A DNA stretch of 64,000 nt from Malania oleifera. Lineage: Eukaryota; Streptophyta; Magnoliopsida; Santalales; Ximeniaceae. The translations under genes and the position numbers were made by a program. Positions 11,896-63,997 of this stretch are shown here, piece by piece (position 1 is the stretch's first letter; every line of letters starts with the position of its first letter). The notes below the pieces were generated by a model. It was not told where the DNA came from and did not search any database. It saw only the letters and a program-made list of their open reading frames with translations. Where the stretch lies: positions 122,210,719 through 122,274,718 of the forward strand of contig NC_080420.1 of NCBI RefSeq assembly GCF_029873635.1, given 5' to 3'.

Positions 11896-11900
11896 AGACA

Positions 11901-12042
11901 TGTTAGATAATAATATATATTATCTAGGGCATTTTAGTCTCTGTACATATATTAGGTTTATGTTTATTCTTTTATGTATTCACTTGTATTGAGTTGTAAA
12001 GTATGCATTTTGGTGTAGTTGCTCGCCTGTGTGCGGCTACCC

Positions 12043-12086
<44 letters not shown>

Positions 12087-12628: not shown

Positions 12629-14689
12629 TATAACGACCTGCCTATTTTATCATAATTCTTTTTAAAGATATAATTAACTTGGTAAAATATAATTCACCTG
12701 GACCCAAGGGTATCAGGAATATACCTGAAATACAACATTGATACCTAAGCAGCGGGGAGCGTAAAATCATATACATTTCAAATTATCTATCCAACACAAT
12801 ACCAGAGTTTTACTACTACTATCATATACATATACATATTCCAAAATATCCAAAAAGTACCCTAGGATCGTCATCCAAAAATTCATCAGACTTTAGAAAT
12901 GACTTACCCTTCAGAAAGGGTAGAATAGTCGAACTCTAATGTTGCAAAGCTCTATCCGCTCTTCTATCTGGGGCTCCTGAAATGTTTGTTGAGCTGGGGT
13001 GAGACACATTTCATTAAAGCAAATAAACTAATATCAGTGTGTGGCAACATGAGTATTTTCGTTTTATACGTATAACAGTACATAAATCATACTTGTTAAA
13101 ACTGTTTGTATCATATTTGGGAAAAATATAATTTATCATAACATGGTATAGCATACTAAATTTCTATACATATAAATCATCTCATATAACGGTACATGAA
13201 AATCACCTTGGATGGATAGCTGACTGATGTCATGTCTTACCCCCACATGACTGGGTTGTGCGGCTCGAAGGCGGGACCTAACAATGGCTGGTCGAACACG
13301 CTAGATCAACATAAGTCCATAAGTACGATGGGTCTGCCCCTCCTGGTCCGGACACTAGAGGGATGCCTGCACTACCATAAAACCACATCGACTGCCGATC
13401 TCCCATTGCCCCTCATAGTAAGTGGTAGCACTAATATATAAATGATCGTGATCATATAACTACGATACCGTACTTCGTGAAAGCCTAAACCAAGCGAACC
13501 AGGTTCTGATAACATATAGTATATTTCCAAATAATGATACATGACTATTTCATAATAATATCTGTTATGTTAATATTTTCATAAAACCTTGCATAACATA
13601 TCATATAAAATTTACGGCCCTTACGTCGGCATAGCATATCATAAAAACCCTCGGCTCTTACGCCGGTATATCATATAAAACCTTGGCTCTTACTCCGGCA
13701 TATCATATAAAGTTCTCGGCCCTTACGTCTGCATATCATATAAAATCCTTAGTTTGAAAATCCCTGTATCATTTAATATTTTCCTGAAAGCAGTAATAAC
13801 ATGCTTATGCTGAAAACATAATATTTCATTTTCATAATTTCTATGATAAATGTTACTCATGCCACACAAAAGGGAATATATTCAGAATATAAGAATCTAT
13901 TCTAAAATCATATTTCTGATATTATACATGAAAACCATATTTTTAAACAATAACATTATTTCCAACATAATCATACAATATACATATTTACTTGAAATTA
14001 AATGCTGTAAAATAGTAAATATATTTTCATAAAATGACTGACTTAATTTATCCCCTTACCTGACTTATGAAAAAGCCTACGAATTACTCCAAAATCACAT
14101 CCGTGTGGTCCCCAACTCAACACCCTGAAATTGATATTTTTCCCAACAAAATCATCTTACCTAACATATTATTCTCAGTCCAGAAACACCAAAAACCTAA
14201 TAAAACTGAAATTAACTAACTTACCCAAATTTTGGGATGGTTCCCAAGTAGGCCTAATCAATGATCCACTCTAGTAGATATGGAGAGAATCTTCCCAGGA
14301 GTAGTGTGGCAGCTTCGGATCATTGAACCGGAAAAAAATCGGCCCAAAAACTTAGAGAGAAAGGGTAAAAGACGAAAAGAGAGAAAGATGAGGGTTTGCA
14401 TGCAGGTTTTCTCGCTGAAAACCCGAGTTTGAGCTATTTATACACCTGCCTTCATTGACGAGACACGTCACTTCGTTGGCGAGACCAAGTAGAGAGTTCG
14501 TCGATGAACACTTATTCATCGTCGATGAATCTCAGGCTCTGAAATAGCCCTCTCGGTAATTCCTTGTCGACGAGACACATGTCCCCGTTGACGATCCGTT
14601 GACGAGGACTTGCTGAGACCCCCTTTAAAATTTCCTTTTCCTTTCCTTCCTTTTATTATTTAATTGCTATAACTCATCGGGTCTCTACA
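12629..14689 (-). mobile_element. Solo LTR, Gypsy-type, inserted in the Copia A leader
   Basis: A 2,061-bp block on the minus strand between perfect tatac duplications (12624-12628 and 14690-14694). Read on its own strand it starts TGTAGAGACCCGATGAG and ends CAGGTCGTTATA. It has a TATAAATAG box (plus positions 14434-14442) next to a cluster of GTCGACGA palindromes (14448-14605). It shares the conserved blocks cggtaccgtag-like (about 13458) and cacaacccg-like (about 13235-13280) with LTRs 28146-30470, 30813-32777 and 60379-62352. No internal coding region is present, so it is a solo LTR. Confidence 0.88.
13605..13750. repeat. Tandem repeat inside solo LTR 12629-14689
   Basis: About four units of roughly 35-38 bp, each made of ggcccttacgtcggca-like and tatcatataaaa words. 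The position corresponds to the variable tandem-repeat zone of the related LTRs. Confidence 0.8.
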
Positions 14690-15039: not shown

Positions 15040-16090
15040 AGTTATTGCAAGAAAAAAGGTTCATTGGAAGGCTCAATGCCCATTAGTACTTTGAGTAAGG
15101 GACAACAATCGATTTTGAAGGATAGACATTATCACACTGCAACCACTACATCATCAGAAGAGTCGTCTCCCACCATGCCTACACTATCTCTTATTGCAGA
15201 GCGGTTGCAGAAGCTTCTTTCTACATCAAAGCCTAAAGTCTTATCTATTTCTTCCTCCCTAGGTTTGTCCTCCTCATCCACTTCAGGTATATCTCCGTTT
15301 ACTTGGGTATTTGACTCGGGTGCTACTCATCATATGTCAAATAACATCTCTTTATTTACATCAATATCTTCTACCTCGACACCTTCATCTGTTTTGGTTG
15401 CCAATGGTACCCTAATGCCATTGGTAAGTACTAGTTCCATCATTTCATCTTATTTGTGTCTTTCTAATGTTTATTGTATTCCTCAACTTTCATTGAATTT
15501 GATTTCTATTAGCCAACTTTGTGATTCTAGATACTGTGTTTTTTTTACTTCAACCTCATGTTTTGTGTAGGATCCAAGTTCCAAGAAGTTGATTGGGACA
15601 GGTCGTATGAAGGGGGGACTGTATGTGTTAGAAGAGTTTTGGGTCAAGGAATTTGCTAGTTCTAGTGTTGACTTGTCTTCATTTCATTTGAGTTCAAATT
15701 CTTCTGACTTTTATTTATGACATTTCGCCTTGGACATGTTTCTAGTTCATGACTGAGATTTTTGGCTTCCACAGGTATCTTAGGAAATGTATCTTCTCAT
15801 GACCTTTTTGATTGTAGTGGTTGTAAGCTTGCCAAATTCTCTACTTTGCCCTTTAATAAAAGTACATCAGTGTCTCTTTCACCCTTTGATATAATCCATT
15901 ATGATATTTGGGGACTAGCTCCTCTTGCCTCAAAGGATGGGTCTCGATATTATGTTTCTTTCATTGATGATTATACTTGTCTTACTTGGATATACCTTTG
16001 AAGAAACGTTCTGATTTCATCAGCATCTATAAAATGTTTCGTGCTTTGATTCAAACACAACATTCAACTGTCATCAAGTGTTTCAGGTGC
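15040..16090 (+). pseudogene. Copia A gag-end, protease and integrase N-terminal remnants
   Basis: A trace of a zinc knuckle (YCKKKG) lies near 15040-15085. A protease active-site motif, WVFDSGATHHMS, lies near 15305-15340. Integrase core sequence (HYDIWGLAPLASKDGSRYY, then VSFIDDYTCLTWIY) spans about 15895-16000. Motifs and order are those of Copia pol. The segment is broken. Confidence 0.85.
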
Positions 16091-16431: not shown

Positions 16432-17539
16432 TAATGGTTAAAGTATATATATAAAATATTATTATCATATAAGTTAAAGTAAGTAAAGGAAAAAAAAAAG
16501 AATAAAGGAAGCTTACCTGGGCAGATTTCAATTGAAATCCATTTTCAATTTGAAACAAAGACGCCTCTCCACACTGCTTTTCTCTATCTCCGTCTCACTG
16601 CTGTCCTCTTCCTCTCTCTCCTGGATTTCATTGGCCTAACTAGCGTTGATCGAAAAACGGAAGGTATGGTTGAGTTCCTAACTCCGCCACCGACATTTCT
16701 ACTAGAGCGGATTTGTCGTGGGAGCAGTGTAGGCACCACTCTTGGGGAAAGGTATATTTCCTCTAAATCCTAAATTTTTTCCTTAAATCTGCCGTTAAAT
16801 TGATGATCAGACACCACCATGGAATGTTAGTCGTGATCATCGTCATTTTGGGATGAGTAAATTTTCAATTAAGGTTTTCAGGCCCCACTCCAAAGCGAGA
16901 GTGGGATTTGAAAAATTAAGTAAATTGGTTATATTTGAGGGTATAATTATTTATTGAGAATTTATGAGTCTAGCAAATGTTAAAATAGTATTTTATTTAG
17001 GATTGATTTAATGGATTTGGGATTTTTGATTCAGGGTTCAGGTGAGTGCTGCATGTATTTTTCGAGGTCCTTGTTGGTATAGTTCAAAAAACCAGGTAAA
17101 GGAAAAAAAATATATTAAATCATAATTTTTATGAATTTAATGGAAAATAAATTGTGTTATATATATGTGTATATGTTACGGTATGGGTTTAAAATGTCAA
17201 CCATTTAAATTATATTTTTTTGAGTTTAGGACTGTTTATTAGATACGTATATGCGAAAATGAACTGATGAAAGTGGAAAATATTTTCAGGATAATTACGT
17301 AAGAAATGAAAGGTATTTTCAGTATATAAACGTTAAATGTTGGTTGACTTATTTTACAGGTAATGTATGAATTTTATTACTAAATTGTGTGGCATGAGTA
17401 AATATAAGTTCTGTGCAAATATATGTTAAATGTATGAGAAGCATGCTAAATAAGTAAAGCATTAAGAATAAAATATGATATGAATCATGTTGCTTGTGTA
17501 TGTTAATGCAACCATATAAATGTATGACAACCGAAAGCC

Positions 17540-20900: not shown

Positions 20901-21210
20901 GAAGAACTTGCTACTTTGTATAAAACCAGCACGTAGGAGTTGGTACCTCTTCCTCCTGTAATGGGATGTGTTATTTATTGCTCTTATACTTCTATTTTTA
21001 TAAGCAAAGAAGGAAGGAGGAAAAACATGAAGGGGGCAGCACAGCAGGACTCGTCGACGAGGGGCCTATGCTCATCAACGAGGGAACAACAGAGGTTTGT
21101 CGACGAAGGCTCTGAAGCTCATCGAAGAATAATTACCGAGAGTAGGAATTTTTTAGATTTCTTGCATCGTCGACGAGAGCCCTGTATTTGTCGACGAAGG
21201 GTCCTCTTGG

Positions 21211-22369
21211 TAGGGATGTACAAAATTTACCGAAAACCCGAGAATCGGACCGAAACCGAACCGTTTGAAGCTTCGATTCGGTTTTTTGGTTTCGGTTTTG
21301 AACATATAAAAAATAGATTTTCGGTTTCGGTTTCGGTTTCACTCAAAAACCGAACCGTAAAAATCGAAAACTGACTATAATTTTAAAATAATTATATCCT
21401 GGGAACTTTAATTACAAGTGCATGTGGAAAAAATAATTATACCTACATTATTTTTTTAATTTAAATTATTGGCTTATACTTTCTCAAGGAGTGGGGAAGG
21501 ATTTTATAAAAGAGGAATGAGAACCAAAACTTCCCATTTTGGCCATGTGGGAGGAGTGCTATTGGGAAGAAGGACCGAACCAATAGCAGCCTGCAACAGT
21601 GCTACTGCCAGTCTACCACAGCAAGCAAGGCATCATCTTCTCCATCTTACGCTCACACAGACACGCACAGCAGGCAACGCATAGCAACTGCAACGCCCAC
21701 ATCTCCAGTAATGCCCACGCTCACGTTCACACAGACACACACAGCAACGCCCACGCTCACGCTCACACAGACACACACAGCAACTGCAACGCCCACATCT
21801 CCAGTTCTCCACGCCCGCGCTCACACACACAGGCACACAGCAACGCCCACGCTCACGCCCATCACCCACGCCTGTTGCTCATGGTCACGCCCACGCTCAC
21901 GCTCACACAAACACACACAACAACGCCAGTCGCTCATGGTCACGCCCACACTCACGCCCATCGCCCATGCCAGTCGCTCACGGTCACGGACTCACGCTGA
22001 CATTATCTTGGTGCTCTACTGCTTTGGCCGTCCCACATTGGTTGGAAATGGGAAGAAAAAATTTTCCTCACCCTATTTATTGAAGTTGGATCTGCTGAAT
22101 CTCTTCCGTGCTAGGCTTTGTAGTCAAAGCCCTAAAGTCGTGGCCCAGTTGGCTGTGGCTGGCTTCATATAATTATTTTTTTATTTTGTTAGTTTAAAAT
22201 TTGGTAAAACCGAAATAACCGAACCGAACTGTAAAATAAACAGTTTGGTTTGGTTTTAAATCGACGGTATATAGTTCGGTTGTGGTTCAGTAGTTTTGAA
22301 AATTGAGAGGTTCGGTTCGGTTGACGGTTTTGGCAATAACCAAACCGAACTGAACCATGTACACCCCTA
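21211..22369. mobile_element. Non-autonomous hAT element in the Copia B 5' LTR
   Basis: A 1,159-bp element with 12-bp terminal inverted repeats TAGGGATGTACA / TGTACACCCCTA (one mismatch). The flanking 8-bp duplications are cctcttgg and cttcttgg (7 of 8 identical), the target length of hAT transposons. Both arms carry complementary runs of AACCGAACCG-type words, as in common plant hAT derivatives. No transposase is present. The 3' LTR of Copia B lacks the insert and continues straight through the empty site, which confirms the limits. Confidence 0.92.
21650..22005. repeat. C-rich minisatellite inside the hAT element
   Basis: Higher-order repeats of cacgctcacgctcacacag, acacacacagcaacgcccac and similar words, with a unit of about 36-60 bp and about six irregular copies. 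Open frames across it are by-products of the repeat. Composition is completely unlike both AT-rich hAT arms. Confidence 0.9.
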
Positions 22370-22710
22370 CTTCTTGGTCTCGTCGACGAGACCCTGTGGC
22401 TACGACAGTTTTTCTGAATTTTGAATTTTTGAACGTTGAGTGGTTGGGAAAATGGGGGGAAACCTCCAAGGAACTTCTATATATGTCATCTGGGCATATT
22501 TTGAGAAGGAGGATGATCATTAAAAGAAGTGTATTGTGTATATTTTGATTTCCTTAGTGAAATTTGTGTGTCATTTCCCGTGGATGTAAGTTTTTCCGAA
22601 CCATGTAAATCTTTGTGTTTATCTTGTTTTGGTTGTGTATGTGTTATTTACATTTACTTGTTATTGTTTATTCCGCTGTACATCTTCATTATACGATCCC
22701 TATCACAACA

Positions 22711-22725
22711 AATTGGTATCAGAGC
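22711..22725 (+). promoter_or_regulatory. Primer-binding site of Copia B
   Basis: aattggtatcagagc directly after the LTR matches the initiator Met tRNA complement used by Tnt1-like Copia elements. Confidence 0.88.
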
Positions 22726-22734
22726 ATAGTTGTT

Positions 22735-25700
22735 ATGGCATCGGGATCGTCATCTGCAAGATTTGACGTTGTCAAATTTGATGGAACCAGAAATTTTGGT
22801 TTATGGCAGAGGAGAGTGAAAGATATTCTAGTGCAACAAGGAATGACTAAAACATTGCTTGATACTCAATTGGAAGGAATGTATGAGATAATATGGGTAG
22901 ATTTGAAAGCAAAGGCAGCGTCGATAATACGCTTGTGTTTGGCCGACGAAGTTCTCTATCGGGTGATGGAGAAGGATTCTCCAACGGCTATCTGGTGAAA
23001 GTTAGAAAGTCAGTACATGTCTAAATCCCTCAATAACAAACTTTTTCTTAAGTAGTGTTTATATTGACTTAAGATGGTAGAAGGATCTAGTCTAGATCAA
23101 CACATCATTGCGTTTAATCAAATCATAAGTGATCTTATGACAGTTGATGTGAAGTTTGATGAGGGCAATAAGGCTTTGATATTGTTAAATTCTTTGCCCT
23201 CAACTCATACCTATGAAAATCTTGTGATTACTCTTACGTGGGGAAAAGAAACACTTGATTTAGAAGAAGTAACAAGTGCTTCATTAAATTTTCATCAAAG
23301 ATTGAAAATATGTGATGAAGGAGAAGGAATTTTGGTAAAGGGCAGTAATGAGCAGGGCAAAGGAAAGTTTAAAATTAGGTCTAATCAGAAATTTCGGAAT
23401 CAATCCAAGAAGAAGAAGGAAATCTGGTGTTATAAATGCGGTAAAAAGGGGCATTTGAAACCGGAGTGTCCAGATTGGAAGAAGGGAAATGCTAATAAGC
23501 ATGAGGGGATTTCTAAATCTGTGAATGTTGTTCAAGAAGAAAATTCAATAGATGGTGATGTTTTATCAGTTTCAGTGGAGTTGGATAATCTAACAGACTC
23601 TTGGATACTTGACTCGGCATGTTCTTATCACATGACTCCAAATAAAGAATAGTTCAACACTTACAGGTTAGTAAATTCTAGATCAGTTGTTATGGGTAAT
23701 GATGCTTCTTGCAAGATCGTTGGTATAGGAAATGTAAAGATAAAGATGTTTGATGGAGCAGTAAGAACATTGTGTAATGTAAGACATATACCTGAGTTGA
23801 GAAAGAGTCTGATATCTCTTGGTAATTTGGATTGTAATGACTTTAATTACAAGTCCAAAGGTAGAGTCGTGACGGTATGGAAAGGTAATTTGACTGCAAT
23901 GAAAGGACAGAAATTGGATGGAAATATTTACACGTTGTTGGGAACTACCGTTGTAGGTGGAGTTGCAACCTTGGATGCTGAATTAGGTGAGATCGTCTTG
24001 TGGCATTTGCGTCTTGGGCATATGAGAGAATATGACATGAAAGAACTACACAAGAGAAAATTTTTGAAAGGTTTAAAATCATGTCAATTGGAATTTTGCA
24101 GATTTTGTGTTCTTGGAAAACAGAATATGACAAAATTTAGATCAGTTACTCACAAGACGAAAGGAATTCTTGACTATGTATATTCAGATGTTTGGGGTCT
24201 AGTTAGAGTTGCATCAAAGGGTGGACATGTGTACTCTGTGAGTTTCATTGATGATTACTCACAGAAGGTTTGGGTTTACTTCATGCGTCACAAATCTAGT
24301 ACGTTTGCCAAGTTTAAGATTTGGAAGACTAAAGTGGAAAACCTGACAGGGAGGAAAATCAAATATTTAAGGTCAGATAATGGGACCGAGTACGTGGATT
24401 CTCGGTTTATGGAGTTTTGTGTGAAGCAGGGCATCAATAGATATTTTACAATTCACCGGACGCCTTAGCAAAATGGTGTGGCAAAACGGATGAATCGGAC
24501 TCTTACTGATAAGACTCGGTGTCTCAGATTGAATGTAGGGCTACCGAAGAACTTTTAGGCTGAGGCAGTTAGTATGACTTGTTTTCTGGTTAACCGATCA
24601 CCAAGGGCATTACTAGCAGGTAAAGTGGCGGAAAAGGTTTGGATGGGAAATGCAGTAAACTACTCCGAATTGAAGGTATTTGGGTGTCTAGCCTATGTCC
24701 ACGTGTCTAGCAAGGAGAGGTCTAAGCTTGACTCGAAGTCTCGTTATTGCATCTTCTTGGGATATCTAGAGGGTATGAAGGGGTATAAACTATGGGACCC
24801 AATGGCAAATAAGGTGGTGATCAGTAGAGATGTAGTCTTTGATGAGAAGGTTATGGTGAAGTGTACTTAAAAGTTTGATGAACAGAAATAGGAGCTAGAA
24901 AGTCGGGGCAGTAATGAACATGTTGTGCAAGTGGAGTTGGAAGCTCAGGACAACGAAAATGATCATGGTCCCGTGGTTGTAGGGAGCTTTAGCTTGGAAA
25001 GCCAGCAAGTCGATGATATTCCGTTAAGAAGATCCAGAAGTACTATTCGGCCTCCGCCAAGGTATGATTTTGATGAGTTAGTATCTTATGATTTCCTTGT
25101 TGCAATGATCTAACTTTTTTTCAAGAGGCAGTGCATGGCCAGGAGAAAGATACGTGGATGGGAGCGATGATTGAAGAGATGGAATCATTACATAAGAACC
25201 TAACTTGGGATTTGGTGGAACTTCTAGATGGAAAGAGACCGATAGGTTGAAAATGGGTGTATAAGAAGAAGGAGGCAATTTCAAAAAAGGAAGGAGAAAA
25301 ATTCAAGGCACGATTGGTGGCAAAAGGATACTCACAAAAGAAGGGGATAGATTATGATGAGATCTTTTCTCCAGTGGTCCGACATACTTCTATCAGAGTT
25401 GTGTTGGGGTTGGTAGCTTATTACGATCTTCATTTGGAACAAATGGATGCGAAAACGGTGTTTCTTCATGGTGACTTGGAGGAACAAATCTATATGGTAC
25501 AACCAAAGGGATTCATTGAACCAGGAAAATAAAATTTTGTTTGTAGTTTGAATAAATCTCTTTATAGGCTGAAACAGTCTCAAAGGCAATGGTATAAACG
25601 GTTTGATTCGTACATGATGAAGATTGACTACAAACGGTGTGAGTATAATTGCTGCGTTTATGTGAATAAACTTGAGGATGGTTCTTTTTTTTTTTTTCTG

Positions 25701-26675
25701 TTATTGTACGTCGATGACATGTTGATAGTTGTAAGAGATTTAACTGAGGTGAATCAGTTAAAGGGTCTGTTGCCTAAGGAATTTGACATAAAGGATCTTG
25801 GTTCAGCCAAGAAAATACTTGGGATGGAGATTCGCCGTGACAGGACTACAGGAAGATTATGGTTATCTCAGGGTGGTTATGTGCAGAAGGTGTTGGAGAG
25901 GTTTAACATGGTTGATGCAATACCGGTGTGTACACCTCTAGTGAATCATTTCAAGTTGTCTACTGCAAATTGCCCAAGTTCGGATGAGGAAATCTGGGAC
26001 AAGTTAAAGGTCCCCTATGCTAGTGCTGTGGGGATTTTAATGTATGCCATGGTATGTAAGAGGAAAAATTTGGCTTATGCGGTAAGCGTGGTGAGCAAGT
26101 TCCTCTCTTATCTAGGAAGGCAGCATTGGGAAGCCGTCAAATGGATACTTAGATACTTGCCGGGTACATCGGGATATGACATCATGTTCGGCAAGTAACA
26201 GGGTTGTCCTTCAGTTATGGGGTTTGTTGATGCAGATTATGCTGAAGATATGGATGACAGAAGGTCTACAAAGGGATATGTGTTTACCCTTGTAGGAGGA
26301 CTAGCATATTGGACATCCATGGTACAGTCTTTAGTTGCATTGTCCACGATTGAGGCAAAGTATATGACAGTTACCGAAGTTGCAAAGGAAGCCTTATGAC
26401 TTACTGGTTTAGTTAGAGAGCTGGAGTTTCAGCAAGATGGTGTGGTGTTGCATTGTGATAGTCAGAGTGTCATTTACTTGGTGAAGAATCAGGTATACCA
26501 TGCTAGGACCAAGCACATTGATGTGAGGTTCCACAGAGTTCGGGAATTGATTGCTTCGAGTGAACTCGTGTTGGAGAAAGTTCACATATCTGATAATGCA
26601 GCAGATATTCTGACCAAATTAGTTACTATAGAGAAGTTCAAGCATTGCTTGGACTTACTTCATGTCTCCAAGTGA
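22735..26675 (+). pseudogene. gag-pol remnant of Copia B
   Basis: Landmarks in order: gag N-terminus (FDGTRNFGLWQRRVKDIL, about 22775); zinc knuckle CYKCGKKGHLKPEC (about 23430); protease WILDSACSYHMTP (about 23602); pre-integrase LWHLRLGHM (about 23998); integrase YSDVWG and VSFIDDYSQKVWVYF (about 24178-24285); RT ARLVAKGYSQKKGIDYDEIF and QMDAKTVFLHGDLEEQIYM (about 25306-25495) and YVDDM (about 25708); RNase H ADYAEDMDDRRSTKGYVF (about 26228). Typical of the Tork/Tnt1-like branch of Copia by general appearance. Broken, with about eight breaks. Confidence 0.9.
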
Positions 26676-26776
26676 TAAAAGGGAGACATACCCAACCAAG
26701 CGTTTTTAAGTTCAAAGAGAAATAGTTCATGTTTTCGAGATTCTCCTAAGGGGCATATAATTGCCAAGACGAAGAT

Positions 26777-27201
26777 TGTTATTTATGACTCTTATACTTC
26801 TATTTTTATAAGCAAAGAAGGAAGGAGGAAAAATATGAAGGAGGCAGCATAGCAGGACTCGTCGACGAGCGTTGACAAAGGCTCTGAAGCTCGTTGACGA
26901 ATAATTACCGAGAGCAAAAATTTTTCAAATTTCTAGCATTGTCGACGAGAGCCCTGTATTTGTCAACGAAGGGTCTTCTTGGTCTCGTCGATGAGGCCCT
27001 GTGTTTGTCGATGAGAGGCGCTTGGGCTGCAGCAATTTTTCTAAATTTTGAATTTTTGAACATTGAGTGGTTGGACAAACAGGGGGGAAACCTTTGAGGA
27101 ACTTCTATATATGTCATTTGGGCATATTTTGAGAAGGAGGATGATTATTAAAAGAAGTGTATTGTGTACATTTTGATTTCCTTAGTGAAATTTGTGTGTC
27201 A
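26777..27201 (+). repeat. 3' LTR of Copia B (incomplete)
   Basis: Repeats the 5' LTR from TGTTATTTAT through the palindrome cluster to ttagtgaaatttgtgtgtca. The 5' LTR continues beyond this point. Confidence 0.85.
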
Positions 27202-27204
27202 TTG

Positions 27205-28140
27205 CTTATGCGAAATGCTTTGTATGGTCTTAAACAAGCTCTCATGGCTTGGTTTGAGAAGTTCTCTAAAGTACTTTGTTCTTTTGGCTTCCGCTCAAAT
27301 GATCATGATTCTGCCATGTTTACTTGTTATACATCTGCTGGACGTATTATTCTCCTTCTTTATGTAGATGATATGATTTTAACTAAATATGATACAGATG
27401 GAATTGCAAAATTGAAATCAAAGTTGCACCACCACTTTGAGATACTTTCTTGGCATTGAGGTAGCCTATTTTCCTAAAGGTTATCTTATTTCTCAGTCTA
27501 AATATGCAACTAATGTCATTCAAAAAGCCCGTCGTACTGATACTCGAACTGTGGAAACTCATTTTGAACGCAATGTTCATTACACCTGATCTTCTGATGG
27601 GGTTCCATTGGTGGATCCAACTTTATACCGTACTATTGTTGGAAGTTTGGTTTATCTCTCCATCACTCGACTTGATATTACATATGCAATTCATATTGTG
27701 AGTCAGTTTGTCTCCTCTCCCACTACAATTCATTGGGTTGTTGTTCTCCGTATCTTACGTTATATCAGAGGGACATTGTATCAGAGTATATTACTTCCTT
27801 CTACATCTACTTTGAAATTTTGTGCTTATCCTGATGCTGATTGAGCTGCAGATCCTATAGATTGCAAGTCTACATGGTTTCTGTATTTTTCTTGGTGACT
27901 CTCTCATTTCCTAAAGAAGCAAAAAGCAATCTGTAGTTTCTCATTCTTCTACTAAGGTAGAATATCATGTCATGACTTCAACTACTGCTGAAATAGTTTG
28001 GTTGCGTTGGTTACTTGCTAACATGGGTGTCTTACTTGCTGAACCTAGTACTATGTATTGTGACAGCACTAGTGCTATTCAGATTGCTCATAACTCTGTC
28101 TTTCATGAACGTACTAAGCATATTGAAATTGATTGTCGTC
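27205..28140 (+). pseudogene. Copia A RT and RNase H remnants
   Basis: Copia A resumes after element B with ALYGLKQALMAWFEKF (about 27220), LLLYVDDMILT (about 27352, the RT catalytic YVDD), GSLVYLSITRLDITYA and the RNase H landmarks TAEIVWLRWLL and YCDSTSAIQIAHNSVFHERT (about 27980-28115). Broken; the element's 3' end follows the next insert. Confidence 0.87.
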
Positions 28141-28271
28141 TCACATGCAACAACCCGAATAATAATGGAATTTAAATAATAAGAGGAGGGGAAATGGAAA
28201 CGGTAACAGAAAGAGGGAGTTGACTTCGTTGACGACATTGCATTTTGGAAAGAAAAATAAAAAGGGGGTCA

Positions 28272-28528
28272 TCGGGGATTCGTCGACGAATACAGGGGAT
28301 TCGTCGACGAGAGTTTAAGAAAATTCGTCGACGAAGAAATACCGAGAGGGTTTGAGCTGACTGAATTTCGTCGACGAGGTTTTAACATAATTCGTTGACG
28401 AAGACTGAATTTCGTCGACGAAGAAATGCCGAGAGAGGTTTTAAGCCGCCTGAATTTCGTCGACGAGGACTGAATTTCATCGACGAAATTACTGAAGGAC
28501 TCATCAACGAGATGACGTGGCTCGTCGA
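28272..28528. repeat. Palindrome array TTCGTCGACGAA / CTCGTCGACGAG
   Basis: About ten copies in 257 bp of a 10-12-bp self-complementary word centred on GTCGAC, several with single C-to-T or G-to-A changes. Two copies are followed by ataccgagag or atgccgagag. The array ends just upstream of the TATA zone. Confidence 0.92.
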
Positions 28529-28537
28529 CGAATCCAG

Positions 28538-28573
<36 letters not shown>

Positions 28574-28635
28574 AAAATCCGATTTTTAACTTCATTCTTA
28601 AGCCATCTTCGCTCTCTCTTTCTCTCCCCTCCGGT

Positions 28636-28690
<55 letters not shown>
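28538..28690. repeat. (TA)n followed by (CT)n microsatellites in the solo LTR
   Basis: A TA run at about 28540-28571 and a CT run at about 28640-28690. They sit where the LTR promoter and early transcript should be. Confidence 0.93.
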
Positions 28691-28694
<4 letters not shown>

Positions 28695-29349
28695 ATTTTT
28701 GGGCCATATTTACGACGGATCAACAATCTGAAGTCACCACGACGCTCCTGGGGAAGTTCTCTCCAATTCTGCCGGAGCGGATCGTTGGTGAAAGCTAGTT
28801 AGAAATCATCCCTGAGTTGAAGTAAGGCTTTTTAAGCCGAATTTGGTCTTGCGATAGTTATAGGAAATGATGTATGCATGAAAATACTGAAGTTTAATAC
28901 TGAGAATTTTCAATTTCAGGGTATTGATCAGGAAATCCTACGGGGGTTAGGCTAGGATATTTTAGGGGCTTTCTCAGTAGCCAAGTAAGGGAATAAACTA
29001 AAGCAGTTATTTTCCATGCAAATTATTATTAATTATGAGTAAATCCATTTTTAGAAAAGCACATGCTATATTTGTATATCACATATGAAATGTATGTTTG
29101 GAAAATACTGATATCATGATTAAAATGTATATGTATGTATGAGATGCCAGAAATGATAATTTTAGAATATGAAGTATGACTTTAAACGGCACATGTGTGG
29201 CATGAACATTATTTTATATGAAGTGAATCATGATATGAATGATTTTACGAGCAAAGCATATTTTCAGATATTTTGAAAGGACGAGTTATGTTTTATTGAG
29301 TTTGATGAATATATGATAAATGAGTTATTTTTAGAATGTAAATACCTGA

Positions 29350-29585
29350 AACGATTCTGGCGTGAGGCCATATTTATGTTATATGCACAAGGCCGTATTC
29401 ATGTTATCGGCACGAGGCTGTATTTACGATTTCGGCATGAGGCCATATTTATGATTTCGGCGCGAGGTCGTATTTATGTTATCGGCACGAGGCCATATTT
29501 ACGATATATTCGGCACGAGGCTGTAATTGCGATACATTAGGCACGAGGCCGTAATTGCGATATATTAGGCACGAGGTCGTAATGA
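29350..29585. repeat. Tandem repeat, about 29-bp unit, about eight copies
   Basis: Units of the form ggcacgaggccgtatttatg with c/t changes, separated by ttatcgg or atattcgg-like spacers. Specific to this LTR copy. Confidence 0.9.
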
Positions 29586-30470
29586 TGTTATGTATGATCA
29601 TGTATTATATGTTATCACAACCAGGATGTTAGTTTAGTTCAGTTCAGAGGCTCGGTACCGTAGCTTATAGATTAGATGTTTATGATCAGATTAGTGCTAA
29701 CCATCCCATAAGGGGATGGGAGATGGATAGTCGATGTGGCTTTCAGTAGAGTGTGGACGTCCACCTGGCAGTCCGGACCAGAGTGTAGCTAGCCCATCAT
29801 ACTTATAGACATATTTGACTCAGTAGTGGTCGGCCAGCCATTGTCAGGTCCCGCCTTCGGGCTACACAACCCGTCATGGGGGGTAATACATGGCATTAGC
29901 TAGCTATTCATCCTGAGTATATGTTTTCAGTATTATCATTATAATAGATACATTACTTATGATATGATTTACTAGTAAATATGAAAGTATATGATGATTT
30001 ATTATATGATGATGAATGTTTACAGAAATATGAAATGTACTGTATATGTATAATTGCATAAAATGTTCATGTTGCCACACAGCTGTATTTAGTTTATTTT
30101 CCCTTCCTGAGAAGTGCCTCACCCCCAAACTTAATTAATTTTTCAGGAGCCCCTAAGAGATCGGCGGATCAAAGCGCTGTTGAGCTAGTGAGATTATCCT
30201 GTGAGGAGGGTAAGATTTTGTAATAGGGTCAGAGTTATTTTGTGTTTAACCCTAGAGATATTTTGATGCATATGAGGATGTATAGAAGTTCAATTTTATA
30301 ATGTTAAAGAAAACTCTGGTATTATGCTTTATGGATGGATGTTGAATTTTATGTTTACTGCTACGTAGAATTCCGCTGTGCTTGACAGGTATCCCCATTA
30401 CCCACGGGTTCGGGTTGACCACTTTATCTATTATGTAACATTTTATATTAAGAAATTGAGGGACGTTACA

Positions 30471-30635
30471 TCACATGTCATCATCTTCGCTTGGGTACCA
30501 TCTCTCTCCCATTCATTTCCTTTACCATGCAGTTGGCTGACTTCTTCACAAAGTCCCACACTATTAGTCGTTTCCAGTTTCTACTCGACAAACTCTCAAT
30601 GCTTTTGGTTGTGCCATCGTGAGTTTGAGGGGGGA
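30471..30635 (+). pseudogene. Copia A 3' end of RNase H, 3' UTR and polypurine tract
   Basis: Sequence after the solo LTR resumes the end of Copia A pol (MQLADFFTKS-type words near 30525, the usual C-terminal RNase H region). It ends in the polypurine tract tttgaggggggatg just before the right LTR. Confidence 0.8.
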
Positions 30636-30887
30636 TGTTAGATAATATATATTATTTAGGGGCATTTTAGTCTATGGACATATATTAGGTTTAGGTTTAT
30701 TCTATTATATATTCCCTTGTATTGAGTTGTAAAGTATGCATTTTGGTGTAGTTGCTCGCCTATGTGCGACTACCCTCGATCTCTGCCTCTTTGTAATCTC
30801 TGTCTCTCTCTCTGTAACGACTCGAAAAATAATGGTATTTAAATAATGAAGAGAGAGAAATGAAATTAGTAACAGAAGGAGGCAGTA

Positions 30888-31132
30888 GACTTCGTCGACG
30901 AATGCTTTGCGTTCGTTGACGACATTGCATTTTGGAGAATATAATTTCAAGAATTTTCGGGATTCATCGATGAATGTCTTCAGGATCTCGTCGACGAGGT
31001 TCCGTTTCGTAGACGAGAAAATACTGAGCGAGGATTTTTGGGCTACTCTGAATTTCGTCGATGAATGATAAGGTTCGTCGACGAATTTACTAAAGGACTC
31101 GTCGACGAGGTGACGTGTCTCGTCAACGAATC
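30888..31132. repeat. Palindrome array in solo LTR 30813-32777
   Basis: About nine copies of ttcgtcgacgaa / ctcgtcgacgag and one-base variants in 245 bp, ending 6 bp before the TATA box. Confidence 0.9.
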
Positions 31133-31138
31133 TGGCCT

Positions 31139-31147
31139 TATAAATAG
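31139..31147 (+). promoter_or_regulatory. TATA box of the solo LTR
   Basis: TATAAATAG. The same nine bases occur at the same place in the related LTRs at 14434-14442 and 62008-62016 (both minus strand). Confidence 0.75.
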
Positions 31148-32819
31148 TGCAAACTCGAATTTTTATTCAAATTTCAGTGCTCTCTCTCTCTCTCCTCTTT
31201 CTCTCTCCTACCGTCCCTCTCCCTTCTCTCTTCGATTTTGGCCCCTCCAGTCGCCGGATCGACGATCTGAAGCCATCATGATGCTCCTGGCAAAGTTCTC
31301 TGCAAGTCTGCCAGAGCGAATTGTTGGTAAAACGAAGTTGAATTTCATCCCGAATCCAGGGTAAGGTCTTTTATTCAGTTTTTGGCTTTCTAGAAGTTGT
31401 AGGAAATGATGTAGGCCAAGAAATATTGATGTTTTGTTATAAGATTTATGGTTTTTAGGGTGTTGAGTGGAGAACCCTGCGGGTGTTGGATCCGTTATAG
31501 TAAGAGATTTTTAGTAGGAACCAGGTAAGAGAAATATGTTATACTAGGAAATTTTAAAATATTATACAGTTTATTAAATTATGAATATTATGTATTAAAG
31601 TATGGTGTGGCTTGAGAATATAAATATAGTACAGAAATATGTTTTACAGTATTTTCGTGTGTTATGTTTTACAGAATATACAAACAGTGGCTATGTTTTA
31701 TAGTAATTACAGAATACCATGATTATACAGTTGATACAGATACAATTTACAACACCATGACATATAGCTTTAGAGTTTATTACAGAAACACAGTTGATAT
31801 AGATACAGTTTTCTACAACGTCATGGTTTATACAGTTATTACAGAATCATGGTAAAACAGATAGTTGTATATATAAAGATGTATATAGTATCAGATCCTA
31901 TTGGACCATACAGTTTACAGAGCACGGTATCGTAGCTACATACAGTTTATAGAATGCAACCACCTATTCAGATAATACGTGGTATAAAGGTCGATCGCAT
32001 AGAGCCCACGAGTGGACAGGCTCCCCATCAGATATGGGTTGAGGAGGGCTGATCAGACTATGGAGTATAGTGATTTATTCCTAGTTGGCTAGCCAGGGTA
32101 AATCCCACCTATGGGCCGCACAACCTTGTCATGAGGGGTTAAATCATAACACACAATTATCTATAGGGAAGTTTACAGTTATTATTATGTTTATACAGCT
32201 TTATAGAAATAGAAAATATATACATATATTAGCAGTATTTTGAATAGAAACCTAAAGTACAAAAATGTTAAGCAACAGGAAAAAAGATGAAGACTACATT
32301 TCTAGTATTGTGCTTTATAGATTCAGTGACAAATGATTATATGAAAACAGGTTTGCATAATATTGTAACTCATTTGCGACACACTAGTAATAACATATTT
32401 TGTCTTACTGAGCGTTGGCTCATCGCAGAATTGAATAATTTTTCAGGTGATCCAAGTAGGCGAGCAGATCAGGCTCGTAGATAGAGGGGCTCCAGTACTG
32501 CCCTGTTAGCAGATAGTGAGTATGTTTGTGGAGGATTTTTGTATATCCTAGCATAGTTGGGGATATTTTGGCAATAGTGATATGTGTATATTTTGGAAAA
32601 CATGTTAGCACTCTGGTATTGTATTGTATATAATTATGTAAGGATATGTTTATGTGATTTTTGCTTCTTGCTGCTTAGGTTAATGATTGGGTTCAATCCA
32701 GTATGATATCAAAGCATGTTAAATATCCTAGTATAAAAAAAAAAAAAAAAACCCCAGTTAAATAGCGGGTCGTTACACTCTCTCTCTTTTGCATTTGGAT
32801 TATGAACTTTAACAAGACA

Positions 32820-44663: not shown

Positions 44664-45201
44664 CGTTGTGAAATGTAACTCACATTCTGAGTGAAAACAT
44701 ACACAAAGGGAAAGCATGAAAGAAATCAAGAAGCAATAGGGGAAACCGTCGACGATTTGGAGCAAAATTTTAGACAAAATGCATTATATCTAAAACCGTC
44801 GACGGTTTGGTTCGGGACACCCTGCACAAATTTTTAATTTTGAATGGGGGAATGTTAATATGGTTCGAGTTTGGAGGGAAACCCTCCGGGAACTCTATAT
44901 ATATGTCATATCTGATATATTTAGAGTGTAGGTTGATAGTTGTTGAGAGAACTGAGAAGGTTCTTGTATTCCTCTTATAATTTACACAAAAAGATAGTGA
45001 ATCCTTATCGTTTGCTCCCGTGGATGTAGGCATTGCTGAACCACGTAATTCCTTGTGTCTTTGTGATTGTTATTGCTTCCTTTAACTTGTTGTAGTCATG
45101 GATTGTTCTGCATTTTCACCATTAAAATGCTGCATTGTGTGTTTGATTCTTTATATACAAATATATATTCCGTTGTGCATATTTTGGGGTTTTACACAAC
45201 A
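44664..45201 (+). repeat. 5' LTR of Copia C
   Basis: About 538 bp, ending TTACACAACA before the primer-binding site. It contains aaccgtcgacgatttgg and aaaccgtcgacggtttgg (about 44747-44810), i.e. a GTCGAC-centred palindrome pair. A TATA-like ctatatatatgtcat lies near 44896. Confidence 0.85.
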
Positions 45202-60254: not shown

Positions 60255-60378
60255 AAAAAAAAGTGTATGTAGTAGGTATATTGATGTCATTAAGGATATA
60301 TACGATGGAGTAATGACTAATGTAAGGCTATTGATGAAGAAACTAGAGAATTTCCAATCACCATAGGTATACATCAAG
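60255..60378 (+). mobile_element. RTE-clade LINE fragment, interrupted by Gypsy D
   Basis: Plus-strand sequence reading YIDVIKDIYDGVMTNVRLL and ENFPITIGIHQ, the RT stretch just before the GSALSPYLFALV motif of RTE LINEs. It stops exactly at the LTR end of Gypsy D. The rest of the LINE is expected beyond the other end of D, outside the window. Confidence 0.8.
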
Positions 60379-61329
60379 TGTAAGGACCTGCTTAATAAAT
60401 TGGGTTTTTATTTTTATTTTTATACTATGATAATCTACATGTTCTGATACCATACTGGGGGTAAAGTCAATCATTAACCTAAGCAGCAAGAAGTAGAAAT
60501 CACATAACATTCATAACTGTAGGTAAATATCTACAATACCATACAATACCAGAGTACTAACAAGTTTCCCAAAATATACACATATATCTGTTCTCCAAAA
60601 TACCCTCAACTATGCTGGGATATACAAAAATCCTCCACAATACTCACTTCACTGACAGGGCACCACTGAAGCCCCTCTATCTGCGAGTTTGGTCTGCTTG
60701 CCTACCTGAATCACCCGAAAAATGATTCAACATTGGGATGAGCCAACGCTCAGTAAGACGAAATATGCTATTACTACTGTATGACAAATGAACTACAATA
60801 TGATGAAAATATGTTTCCATATAAACATGTATAACTGAATATGTAAATACAGTATAAGTAATAAAATTCACCCCCTTTCCATGTTGCTTAACATAATAGT
60901 ATCGTAGGTTACTATTCAAAATACTTCTAGTATACATAAGTATGTTCCCTAGTTCTGTAAATCTGTACATACGTAATAGTAACTGAAAACTTTTCCTATG
61001 GATAACTGTGTGTCATGATTTAACCCCTCATGACAGGGCTGTGCGGCCCTGTAGGTGGGATCTACCCTGGCTAGCCAACCAGGAATAAATCACTATACTC
61101 CATCGGTCTGATCTGCCCACCTCAACCCATATCTGATGGGGAGCCTATCCACGTCAAGGGTCTAGGTGATCGACCTACTACCACGTATTATCTAAATAAG
61201 TGGTTGCACTCATAACATAACATAATATCTGTAACAACGGTACCGTGCTCTATAACTGCGTAGTCTAACAGGGTCTGATACTATATAATATATCTCTATA
61301 GACAACTATCTGATTTACCATGATTCTGA

Positions 61330-61515
61330 AATAATCGTAATAATCATGATGCTGCATAAACTGTAACTGTAATTCATACGTCATAGTACTGAGAACTGTA
61401 TAATCATAACACTGAGAACTGCATAATCATAGTACTGAAGTTCGTATAATCATGGTACTGAAATTCGTATAATCATAATACTGAAATTCGTAAAAATCAT
61501 GGTATAGAAATTTGT
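61330..61515. repeat. Tandem repeat in the Gypsy D LTR
   Basis: About six units of 27-29 bp: ataatcat.gtactga.a.tcgt. Confidence 0.85.
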
Positions 61516-62007
61516 AAAAATCATATCCTCGTACTATATTCGTATTCTCAAGCCACACCATTCTTATATATATAATTTTCATAATTTAATAAGTTGTATA
61601 ATATTTTAAAAATACCTAGCATAGCATATTTCCCTTACCTGACAACTAGAAAACCCCCTATGGTATACTGGTCTAACACTCGCAGGGCCTCCTACATAAC
61701 ACCCTGAAAACAATGTTTGCCAAAACAAAATATCAGTATTTTTTCGTTTACATCATTTCTTATAAATGTCATAAGGCCAAAAATGGACTAAAAGGCCTTA
61801 CCCTGAATTTGGGATGAATTCCAACTCGATCCCATCGACGATTCGTCCTAACAAACTTGAAGAGAACTCCACTAGGAACGTCGTGGTGGCTTCATATCTT
61901 CGATCCGGTGAGGAATAGGCCCGGAAATGAAGAAAGAAGTGAGAGAGGGACGTAAAGAAAGAGAGAGAGAGAGCGGCGTCGAAAATGGATAAAAATCCGA
62001 TTTTTAG

Positions 62008-62016
62008 CTATTTATA
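62008..62016 (-). promoter_or_regulatory. TATA box of the Gypsy D LTR
   Basis: TATAAATAG on the minus strand, directly downstream of the palindrome cluster, as in the two solo LTRs. Confidence 0.75.
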
Positions 62017-62025
62017 GGGCCAGAT

Positions 62026-62184
62026 TTGTCGACGAGACACGTCATCTCATCGATGAGTCCTTCATTAAATTCATCGACGACACCCTGTATTCGTCAACAA
62101 AATTTAGAGCAGCCCATTCTTGGCTCGGTAGTTTCTCGTTGACGAACCCCTGTATTTGTCGATGAATTCTAGCAATTTCTTAAA

Positions 62185-62225
<41 letters not shown>

Positions 62226-62283
62226 CTCCAAAATGCGATGTCGTCGACGAACACCCTGCATTCTTCGATGAAGTTTACTGCCT
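62026..62283. repeat. Palindrome array in the Gypsy D LTR
   Basis: About eight GTCGACGA-type words or one-base variants (e.g. ttgtcgacgagacac, attcatcgacgacac, atgtcgtcgacgaacacc), interrupted by an ATT microsatellite at about 62183-62225. Confidence 0.88.
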
Positions 62284-62614
62284 CCTTCTGTTCCTATTTC
62301 CATTTTCCTCCCTCTTTATTATTAAAATAATATTATTCTTCGAGTCAATACATTCTCCCCTCATAAAATTTCATCCTCGAAATTTACTATCTGTATTCCC
62401 TTCTATCATCTTATAAGGAAAAATGGTCTACTTATTTTATTACCTACCCTCACTTATGGCGGAGGAATACCGTGGTTACATGGGTTGTTCTGGGAGATTA
62501 CAAATATAAAAAAAAATTTCCCCCAAAACCAAAATACTACCTAACATATACTCTACATTACAATTACACTGGACTCATCAAAATAAAATTACCATCTTAG
62601 CGTATACATCAATA

Positions 62615-63997
62615 CTATAATTCATCAAATAAATAGGGATATTTTCGTCTGATTTCATCTTCAAGCTCCCATGAGGCTTCTTCAATCGCGTGGTTTTTCT
62701 ATAGAACTTTTACTAGTGGTATCTTCTTGTTGCGCAATTCTTGTTCTTTTCTATCTAAAATCTGAACTGGAGCTTCTTCATACGCTAAAGCCTCACTGAC
62801 TTCCAGTTTTGCATGGCTGATGATATGGGAAGGATTTGGGACGTATTTTCTTAACATAGAAATATGAAATACGTCATGAACTCGAAATAGAGATGGTGGT
62901 AAAGCCAGCCGATAGGCTACTGACCCAATCTTCTCAAGGATCTCAAAAAGGCCAATAAACCTAGGGCTCAACTTACCCTTCTTCCCAAATCTCAAAATCC
63001 CCTTTAGTGGAGTTATTCTCAGAAATACATAATTACCTACTTCAAATTCCAATACTCGACAGCGAGTATTCGTGTAGCTTTTTTGCCGACTCAGCACTAC
63101 ACTGATCCTATTTCGAATAAGTTGGACTTTATCACATGCTTGCTGAATTATCTCTGGACCCAAAACTCGTCTTTCACCTACTTCATCCCAAAAAAGAGGA
63201 GATCGGCATCTCCTACCATATAATGTCTCGTAAGGTGCCATGCTGATGCTAGTCTGATAACTGTTATTATAAGCAAATTCAACTAGCAGCAAAAACTGAA
63301 TCCAGCTACCTCCAAAGTCTAGCACACAGGCACAAAGCATATCTTTCAATATCTGGATTGTTCTCTCAGTTTGACCATCAGTCTGAGGGTGGAAAGCAGT
63401 ACTAAATGCTAGCTGAGTCCCCAATGCCTCCTGCAAACTCCTCTAGAACCGTGATGTTAAACGTCGATCATGGTCCGAGACTATGGATATCGGCACTTCA
63501 TGGGGTCGAATAATCTCCTGTATGTAAATCTCTGCTAACCTATTCATAGGGTAGTTGACTTTGATGGGCAGAAAATGCGCTGTTTTTGTCAACCTATCAA
63601 CTATTACCCAGATGGTATTCTGACCATGCAACGCCGACGGTAGCCCAGTAACAAAATCCATGGACACGTGGTCCCACTTCCACTCAGGAATGAAAAGTGG
63701 CTGCAACTAACCAGCCGACCTCTGGTGCTCAGCCTTAACCTACTAGCACGTCAAACACTGCTGCACAAACGCTGCTATTTCTCTTTTCATGCCACTCCAC
63801 CAGAAATAATCTCGTAGATTCCTATACATTTTCGTACTACCAGGATAAACAATGTATAGAGATCTGTGTGTCTCCTCTAGAATTGTCCTCCTGATGCTGT
63901 CATCTGCAGGCACACACAATCCGGTGCGGAATCTCAAAGCCCCATCATCAAAAATACTGAATTCCTCTCCTTGGCCATCATGTACTCTGACTATCAC
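62615..63997 (-). pseudogene. Integrase and chromodomain region of Gypsy D
   Basis: Reading on the minus strand: zinc-binding region of integrase (HRSLYIVYPGSTKMYRNLRD, WWSGMKREIAAFVQQCLTC) near the right edge; catalytic core with VSMDFVTGLP and IVSDHDRRLTS; FHPQTDGQTERTIQILKDML and the FAYNNSYQTSI stretch; GPFKILEKIG-like LFEILEKIGSVAYRLALP; then the chromodomain-like end VQILDRKEQELRNKKIPLVK and EEASWELEDEIRRKYP, ending at 62615. Families with this order are Tekay/Del-type chromoviruses. Confidence 0.88.

What the first reader, a model, noticed from the sequence alone, without database searches (positions are those of the whole stretch)
21049..28440. Same promoter module in Copia and Gypsy LTRs
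Seen: Copia B LTRs carry GTCGACGA palindromes and the spacer aattaccgagag (21131-21142 and 26903-26914). The Gypsy-type solo LTR at 12629-14689 has the exact inverse ctctcggtaatt (14550-14561). The LTR at 28146 has cgtcgacgaagaaataccgagag in two 20-base-or-shorter overlapping parts near 28326-28348, and Gypsy D has a related taccgag word near 62130. Copia and Gypsy LTRs are not expected to share sequence. Inference: a cis-regulatory cassette was exchanged between superfamilies by recombination or template switching, or was captured independently from one host source.
Basis: partly seen in the sequence, partly recalled or inferred. Interest (0 to 1): 0.82.

Follow-up and report, generated by a model that had tools for sequence, protein, structure and literature searches.

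The report
Shared palindrome enhancer in unrelated retrotransposons
Several unrelated families of jumping elements in what appears to be a plant genome carry the same patterned array of a ten-letter palindrome in front of their start of transcription, which suggests that such elements can pass control switches to one another.

Summary
The words are real, but they are the edge of something larger. In the window and in 200 kb sampled from the same 1.49-Gb genome, Gypsy LTRs and two distant Copia lineages carry an array of TCGTCGACGA at start-to-start spacings of 20/21, 24/25, 20/21, a gap of about 46 holding ACCGAG, then 20/21, 24/25, 20/21, upstream of a TATA-like site. The palindrome occurs 132,361 times genome-wide, its reversed control 1,383 times. 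Pairs with 12-13-base spacers number 269, against 17,686 with 8-14-base spacers. Spacers between palindromes resemble each other across Copia and Gypsy more than shuffled or random spacers do. All 22 same-strand Copia-Gypsy LTR matches lie in the array or within 5 bp of it. The closest known kind is the palindromic boxes of Sirevirus LTRs (PMC2829016). One carrier has Sirevirus features; other Sirevirus-like LTRs use a sister palindrome, YRGTCGACYR (189,996 places). Best reading: a portable U3 enhancer array, moved between superfamilies and read by a host factor. Homology of the arrays is supported; factor, route and direction are inferred. Convergent assembly is the main rival.

The parts
20969..22575 (+). 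Copia B 5' LTR as far as it matches the 3' LTR; about 1.17 kb of extra DNA (21212-22381) lies inside it, and the LTR probably runs on to near the PBS-like site at 22714
21051..21197 (+). TCGTCGACGA array in Copia B 5' LTR, 6 sites at spacings 21,25,22,48,21
22380..22389 (+). one more exact TCGTCGACGA of the Copia B 5' LTR, beyond the extra DNA that interrupts the array
21131..21142 (+). AATTACCGAGAG in the long gap of the array
22704..26198 (+). Copia B internal region: gag, zinc knuckle, integrase and RVT_2 pieces, broken by stops
26777..27203 (+). Copia B 3' LTR (matching part)
26859..27014 (+). TCGTCGACGA array in Copia B 3' LTR
26903..26914 (+). AATTACCGAGAG
12629..14689 (-).
14452..14605 (-). 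array in Gypsy A, with AATTACCGAGAG at 14550-14561; TATAAATA 9 bp beyond the last site
28146..30471 (+). Gypsy LTR; no partner LTR found in the window
28226..28531 (+). array in that LTR, 7 exact palindromes; ACCGAGAG at 28341-28348 and GCCGAGAG at 28428-28435; TATA 9 bp beyond the last site
30813..32779 (+). Gypsy E LTR
30892..31129 (+). array in Gypsy E (ACTGAGCG in place of ACCGAGAG)
60377..62352 (-). Gypsy D LTR, taken as the 3' LTR of the element whose pol end is at 62699-63442 (-)
62026..62271 (-). array in Gypsy D, ACCGAG in the long gap (CTCGGTA on + strand at 62124-62130)
44746..44805 (+). Copia C 5' LTR: CCGTCGACGA and CCGTCGACGG, same GTCGAC core, other flanks

Best explanation
It is a compact enhancer array in the U3 part of LTRs: up to two groups of four TCGTCGACGA palindromes (20/21, 24/25, 20/21) around a central ACCGAG word, upstream of a TATA-like site. 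The Gypsy, Copia B and Cop7 arrays descend from a common array, so it has crossed between superfamilies at least once and more likely twice, as a block of about 150-300 bp. Shown: presence, spacing rule, U3 position, spacer similarity above chance, restriction of same-strand LTR similarity to the array, patchy presence among Copia lineages, and decay by CpG transitions. Inferred: that a host DNA-binding factor (or a family of them) recognises the GTCGAC-centred palindrome cooperatively at fixed spacing and drives transcription; that the exchange went by template switching or recombination between U3 regions, helped by the many short palindromes; and that the direction was more likely from Gypsy, where the array is common in the sample, to Copia.
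For: Genome-wide counts against reversed controls. Adjacent spacings of 19-25 bp in 21 Gypsy arrays: 0 of 104 are 22 or 23; in 5 Copia arrays 2 of 28. Spacers of each of 5 Copia arrays score higher on average against 21 Gypsy arrays than 400 of 400 shuffles and 300 of 300 replacements by random genomic pieces. All 22 Copia-Gypsy same-strand blastn matches among 15 LTRs lie in the array or within 5 bp of it. Of 19 clusters with at least 4 sites in 264 kb, 14 lie in LTRs that I had delimited, 1 inside the Cop7 element, 3 near a start motif within 3 mismatches of TGTAACGACCCG, and 1 (C7 block 39031) has neither, though a Gypsy pol end lies 0.3 kb away. Copia B and Cop7 RTs are 30% identical and fall in separate groups (support 0.976 and 1.000) that also hold members without this array. 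Cop7-type word 85 places, control 0; Copia-B type 37 places, control 0. CpG observed/expected 1.6-2.3 in four arrays against 0.24-0.84 in the rest of the same LTRs (the sites themselves hold three CpGs each). 158 of 174 site mismatches are CpG transitions. Last site 9-10 bp before TATA in 5 of 6 Gypsy LTRs.
Against: Plain pairwise alignment of palindrome-masked U3 regions is mostly at chance: of 32 Copia-Gypsy pairs, 2 had at most 3 and 7 had at most 10 of 300 shuffles reaching the observed score. The clear signal needs the palindromes as anchors and averaging over many Gypsy arrays. The best single Gypsy match of Copia B's 5' array is reached by 50 of 400 shuffles, that of L011 by 10 of 400. 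Copia B against Cop7 arrays: 52 and 11 of 400 shuffles reach the observed mean. For the Copia B 5' array the reverse complement scores nearly as well (91.8 against 94.4), and its CCCTGTATT spacers are the inverse of the Gypsy ATACAGGG spacers, so part of it is inverted or independently built. TATA-like sites are 91-109 bp from the last site in three Copia LTRs and 20 bp in one Gypsy LTR. No expression, binding or methylation data. No tree of the arrays, so no direction.
Confidence: 0.58

Rival explanations
1. Convergent assembly: unrelated LTRs independently built arrays for the same two host factors, one binding GTCGAC palindromes and one binding CCGAGAG, and selection on spacing made them alike.
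For: Sirevirus-like LTRs use YRGTCGACYR palindromes (189,996 against 11,321 for the reversed pattern) at other spacings, and still pair them with CCTCTCGG, 4,977 places against 5 in the control, in the opposite direction. Copia C has a third flank type. Weak similarity between the two Copia arrays themselves and the near-equal reverse score of Copia B. Recurrent gain of heat-responsive elements in COPIA LTRs is in print (PMC5059998, abstract seen).
Against: Spacers, not only sites, are alike between class-I Copia and Gypsy arrays; Cop7 and several Gypsy arrays share AC/ATACAGGG spacers and a TGAATT after ACCGAG; the order and the gap of about 46 recur.
Confidence: 0.28
2. The array is not a transcription enhancer but a by-product or target: a hairpin-forming, CpG-rich, recombination-prone block that is a hot spot for small RNAs and methylation, spread because palindromes promote template switching.
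For: The sites are self-complementary, so neighbours could pair (not folded here); CpG transitions dominate decay. [quoted passage not shown]
Against: The fixed place before TATA in Gypsy, the spacing rule, the non-palindromic ACCGAG word and its common direction are not needed for this.
Confidence: 0.1
3. A fragment of Gypsy LTR was inserted into the LTR of this one Copia copy.
For: Copia B 5' LTR does carry about 1.17 kb of extra DNA (21212-22381).
Against: The array is in both LTRs; 37 places genome-wide have the Copia-B form; a second Copia lineage has its own form at 85 places. The extra DNA interrupts the 5' array after its sixth site and is absent from the 3' LTR, so it is later than the array.
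Confidence: 0.02
4. Inheritance from a common ancestor of Copia and Gypsy.
For: None found.
Against: Three other Copia LTR types of the sample have no TCGTCGACGA-like site, and neither they nor Copia C match any Gypsy LTR (same strand, E up to 0.01); parts of array-bearing LTRs outside the array do not match either.
Confidence: 0.02

Closest known systems
Repeated-motif (RM) boxes of Sirevirus LTRs, Bousios et al. 2010 (PMC2829016; abstract and passages seen)
   Same: Many copies of a short palindrome in the LTR upstream of TATA, a further cluster 5' of the envelope gene, CpG-island character. The Vitis element has CGGTCGACCG, which belongs to the sister class found here.
   Different: There 12 of the 13 listed motifs have a CGG-CCG signature and all are in Copia Sireviruses. 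Here TCGTCGACGA lacks CGG-CCG, is shared by Gypsy and a second Copia lineage, and follows a 20/21-24/25-20/21 spacing with ACCGAG in the middle.
CpG islands in the 5' part of Del (Gypsy) LTRs, Cruz et al. 2014 (PMC4029996; abstract and passages seen)
   Same: CpG-rich, variable stretch in the 5' half of Del LTRs; the commonest Del U3 end there is TGTAACACCC, and Gypsy LTRs here begin with TGTAACGACCC-like sequence.
   Different: That study reports no CpG island in its eudicot Del group; the words 'palindrom' and 'tandem' do not occur in its text.
Concerted evolution of noncoding regulatory sequences between pararetrovirus species (PMC5491270; abstract and outline seen)
   Same: Regulatory DNA shared and homogenised between different reverse-transcribing elements in one host by region-specific recombination.
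   Different: There virus species in partnership; here different LTR-retrotransposon superfamilies, recombination not shown.
Recurrent heat-responsive elements in Brassicaceae COPIA LTRs (PMC5059998; abstract and outline seen)
   Same: A host-factor site gained in LTRs of several families.
   Different: Gains within COPIA families, mostly species-specific; the abstract claims no spacer sequence shared with Gypsy.

Membership tests
Sirevirus (element in block C7, LTRs C7:25,009,378-25,010,778 and C7:25,017,824-25,019,229, 'Cop7') | palindromic repeated motif in LTR upstream of TATA, at least 8 copies | tested here: met
   11 and 10 sites with up to 2 mismatches in the two LTRs; TATA-like TTAAATA 109 bp on
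Sirevirus (Cop7) | CGG-CCG core of the motif | tested here: not met
   motif is TCGTCGACGA; Tnd-1 is a printed exception to this feature
Sirevirus (Cop7) | several polypurine-tract copies before the 3' LTR | tested here: met
   four AGGGGGA-type tracts at block positions 17396, 17719, 17761, 17815
Sirevirus (Cop7) | poly-C signal near LTR end | tested here: met
   C11 and C6 runs about 30 bp before the two LTR ends
Sirevirus (Cop7) | motif cluster before an envelope-like gene | tested here: inconclusive
   4-site cluster at block 15767-15885 after pol; the two ORFs from 15854 on match no Pfam family
Sirevirus (Cop7) | RT in the Sirevirus clade | not testable with these tools
   no named Copia lineage references at hand; tree holds only elements of this genome
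Del/Tekay Gypsy (array-bearing Gypsy LTRs) | LTR start like TGTAACACCC, LTR about 2 kb | tested here: met
   by eye: TGTAACGACCCG (L002), TGTAACGACTCG (E), TGTAGAGACCCG (A), TGTATTGACTCG (D), TGCAACAACCCG (28); LTRs of 1.97-2.33 kb in the window; a second group begins TGTAAGAACCCG
Del/Tekay Gypsy | chromodomain at the integrase C-terminus (recalled) | tested here: inconclusive
   SH3_Tf2-1 found in 3 of 3 ORFs, chromodomain in none; ORFs are short or broken

The most novel reading that the evidence does not exclude
GTCGAC-centred palindromes are a shared regulatory currency of this genome's retrotransposons. Unrelated families plug into the same host (or element-encoded) activator by trading a whole spaced array, and a Sirevirus lineage has switched from the YRGTCGACYR class to the TCGTCGACGA class both in its LTRs and in its internal array, so that the trans-acting factor, not the DNA neighbourhood, is what is inherited.
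Probability: 0.3. Interest if true: 0.82.

Novelty: new variant of a known kind. Interest (0 to 1): 0.62.

Why it matters
Promoters of plant LTR retrotransposons are usually thought to evolve within a family (recalled, no call). A spaced array shared by Gypsy and two distant Copia lineages, in a genome with over 130,000 exact copies of its unit, would show that control DNA can spread between superfamilies. It gives a testable route by which one host signal may wake many families at once, and a test case for whether palindrome arrays favour amplification.

Tried and rejected
Plain local alignment of palindrome-masked U3 regions was mostly at chance and is reported as evidence against. Similarity of the 80 bp upstream of the array between Copia B and Gypsy is suggestive only: 7 Gypsy LTRs compared with each Copia B LTR, 0-3 of 500 shuffles for GypD and GypA, 12-387 of 500 for the other five; for Copia C 194-491 of 500. 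TAGTCGACTA alone is only twofold enriched (1,970 against 972); the sister class is the degenerate YRGTCGACYR. After TCGTCGACGA-like sites are masked, GTCGAC is only 1.43 times its Markov expectation in 264 kb (19 against 13.3), so the sample alone shows no strong general GTCGAC excess; the excess of YRGTCGACYR shows genome-wide. Of 21 CCGAGAG in 264 kb, 10 lie within 60 bp of a TCGTCGACGA-like site. A link of the spacings to small-RNA lengths was dropped for want of any test. A lead from recall only: cereal CBF/DREB-type AP2 factors accept GTCGAC; not tested. No organism was named by any tool; 'plant' is inferred from the kinds of retrotransposon. Paper searches for the palindrome or for cross-superfamily sharing; none of the listings showed this array, and subscription journals are mostly not held. 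PMC3601003 (LTR structure models) was seen in passages only. The 2016 Genome Research paper on palindromes in maize Sirevirus LTRs was seen only as a reference.

Rows left out of the 26-array set: the second C1 LTR (39152), four arrays of C7 taken as Gypsy (1878, 23227, 35945, 39031), the Cop7 internal cluster, L015, and L006-L008, which overlap L005. The set holds both LTRs of some elements, and the arrays from L-loci were chosen by an exact pair with an 8-14-base spacer. Copia C dropped out of the RT tree because its RT gave no alignable columns (13 of 14 loci used). Blastn was on the same strand only.
Full report
WHAT WAS CLAIMED AND WHAT IS THERE. The window belongs to a genome of 1.494 Gb in 510 contigs, taken to be a plant from its retrotransposons (inference). 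Copia B has direct-repeat LTRs at 20969-22575 and 26777-27203 with copia-type gag, integrase and RVT_2 pieces between them. Gypsy LTRs stand at 12629-14689 (-), 28146-30471 (+), 30813-32779 (+) and 60377-62352 (-).

THE UNIT IS AN ARRAY. TCGTCGACGA with up to two mismatches occurs 61 times in the window; 52 of these lie in six clusters, each inside one of these LTRs. With one mismatch it occurs 35 times; none of 29 other palindromes with permuted half-sites exceeds 2. Over 264 kb (window plus five 40-kb blocks) the count with one mismatch is 104; the next of the 30 palindromes has 8. One 40-kb block (C3) has no site with up to one mismatch. Genome-wide the exact palindrome occurs 132,361 times, its reversed control 1,383 times.

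SPACING RULE. Oriented by TATA, the fuller arrays read 20/21, 24/25, 20/21, about 46, 20/21, 24/25, 20/21 (start to start), often with ACCGAG or a close form in the long gap; many arrays have lost one or more sites. In 21 Gypsy arrays 0 of 104 adjacent spacings between 19 and 25 bp are 22 or 23; in 5 Copia arrays 2 of 28. The arrays include LTR pairs of one element, and the 3-kb loci were chosen for an exact pair with an 8-14-base spacer, so the counts are not independent. Genome-wide, exact pairs with spacers of 8-14 number 17,686, those with spacers of 12-13 number 269.

COPIA AND GYPSY SHARE MORE THAN SITES. Besides Copia B, a distant Copia in block C7 ('Cop7', RVT_2 E 5.7e-42) has 11 and 10 sites in its two LTRs. 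One of the 12 distinct loci brought in by the pair search (L011) has the Cop7 form; the others look by eye like Gypsy LTRs where the LTR start is in view. Keeping palindromes in place and shuffling spacer letters, each of five Copia arrays scores higher on average against 21 Gypsy arrays than all 400 shuffles. Replacing the spacers by random genomic pieces gives 0 of 300, and reversing or reverse-complementing them 0 of 100, at or above the observed score. The effect is smaller than among most Gypsy arrays. Against it: pairwise masked alignment is mostly at chance, the best single match of Copia B's 5' array is not significant (50 of 400), and that array is nearly as good in the other direction. 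Blastn of 15 LTRs on the same strand finds 22 Copia-Gypsy matches, all in the array or within 5 bp of it; four Copia LTR types without the array (three with no site, and Copia C) match no Gypsy LTR.

NOT A ONE-COPY ACCIDENT. A 35-base Copia-B form with its spacer occurs at 37 places on 12 contigs, two of them 4.6 kb apart on C2. The Cop7 form occurs at 85 places on 13 contigs, reversed control 0. In a tree of 13 Copia RT fragments, Copia B groups with three lineages 51-64% identical to it, one of which has an LTR pair without the palindrome; Cop7 groups with two others (61% and 65%). Copia B and Cop7 are 30% identical.

SISTER PALINDROMES. Sirevirus-like LTRs of the sample (so called by position and by eye) carry YRGTCGACYR arrays: 189,996 genome-wide against 11,321 for the reversed pattern, and YRGTCGACYR followed within 34 bases by CCTCTCGG 4,977 times against 5. 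The relative of Cop7 in block C5 (RT 61% identical) has this class upstream of its coding region, and CAGTCGACTA and CAGTCGACTG just after pol, where Cop7 has TCATCGACGA-type sites. Thus one lineage seems to have changed class at both places. That the C5 array belongs to that element's LTR is inferred from position; its LTR pair was not found.

HOW IT MOST LIKELY WORKS. The arrays are islands of CpG (observed/expected 1.6-2.3 against 0.24-0.84 in the rest of four LTRs), in good part because each site holds three. Of 174 mismatches at 191 sites, 158 are CpG transitions, the mark expected of methylation after insertion. In 5 of 6 Gypsy LTRs the last site ends 9-10 bp before TATA, in the sixth 20; in three Copia LTRs a TATA-like site follows after 91-109 bp. 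This fits an upstream activator array bound by a palindrome-reading factor at fixed spacing. That step is inferred.

WHAT IS KNOWN. Bousios et al. 2010 (PMC2829016, abstract and passages) described high-copy palindromic boxes with a CGG-CCG signature upstream of TATA and before the envelope gene of Sireviruses, with CGGTCGACCG in Vitis. The sister class here is of that kind, and Cop7 has repeated polypurine tracts and poly-C runs as Sireviruses do, though its box lacks CGG-CCG. Not in the passages and listings seen: the same box and spacing in Gypsy and in a second Copia lineage. The ten paper searches cannot exclude that it is in print elsewhere.

VERDICT.

Noticed in passing
genome-wide; sample C5:60025850-60026320, C7:25003350-25004100, C7:25000050-25000520: Second palindrome class YRGTCGACYR in Sirevirus-like LTRs, 189,996 exact places, paired with CCTCTCGG at one end.
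   Followed up: partly
L033:5767-5885 (C7:25015767-25015885): Four TCGTCGACGA-like sites inside the Cop7 element just after pol and before further ORFs: a possible internal promoter.
   Followed up: partly
21649-22001: Tandem CACGCACAGCAACGCC-like repeats inside the extra 1.17 kb of the Copia B 5' LTR, in a 220-aa open frame (21510-22172).
   Followed up: no
29351-29590: 25-base tandem repeat (CGGCACGAGGCCGTATTTATG-like) inside the Gypsy LTR at 28146.
   Followed up: no
L020-L022 (C2:45008437-45020388): About 12 kb of roughly 1.05-kb tandem units, about 81-95% alike.
   Followed up: no
11900-12080 and 30635-30813: 183-bp direct repeat, 87% alike, on both sides of a stretch that holds Gypsy A, Copia B and the 28-kb LTR: possibly two ends of an older element into which they inserted.
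   Followed up: no
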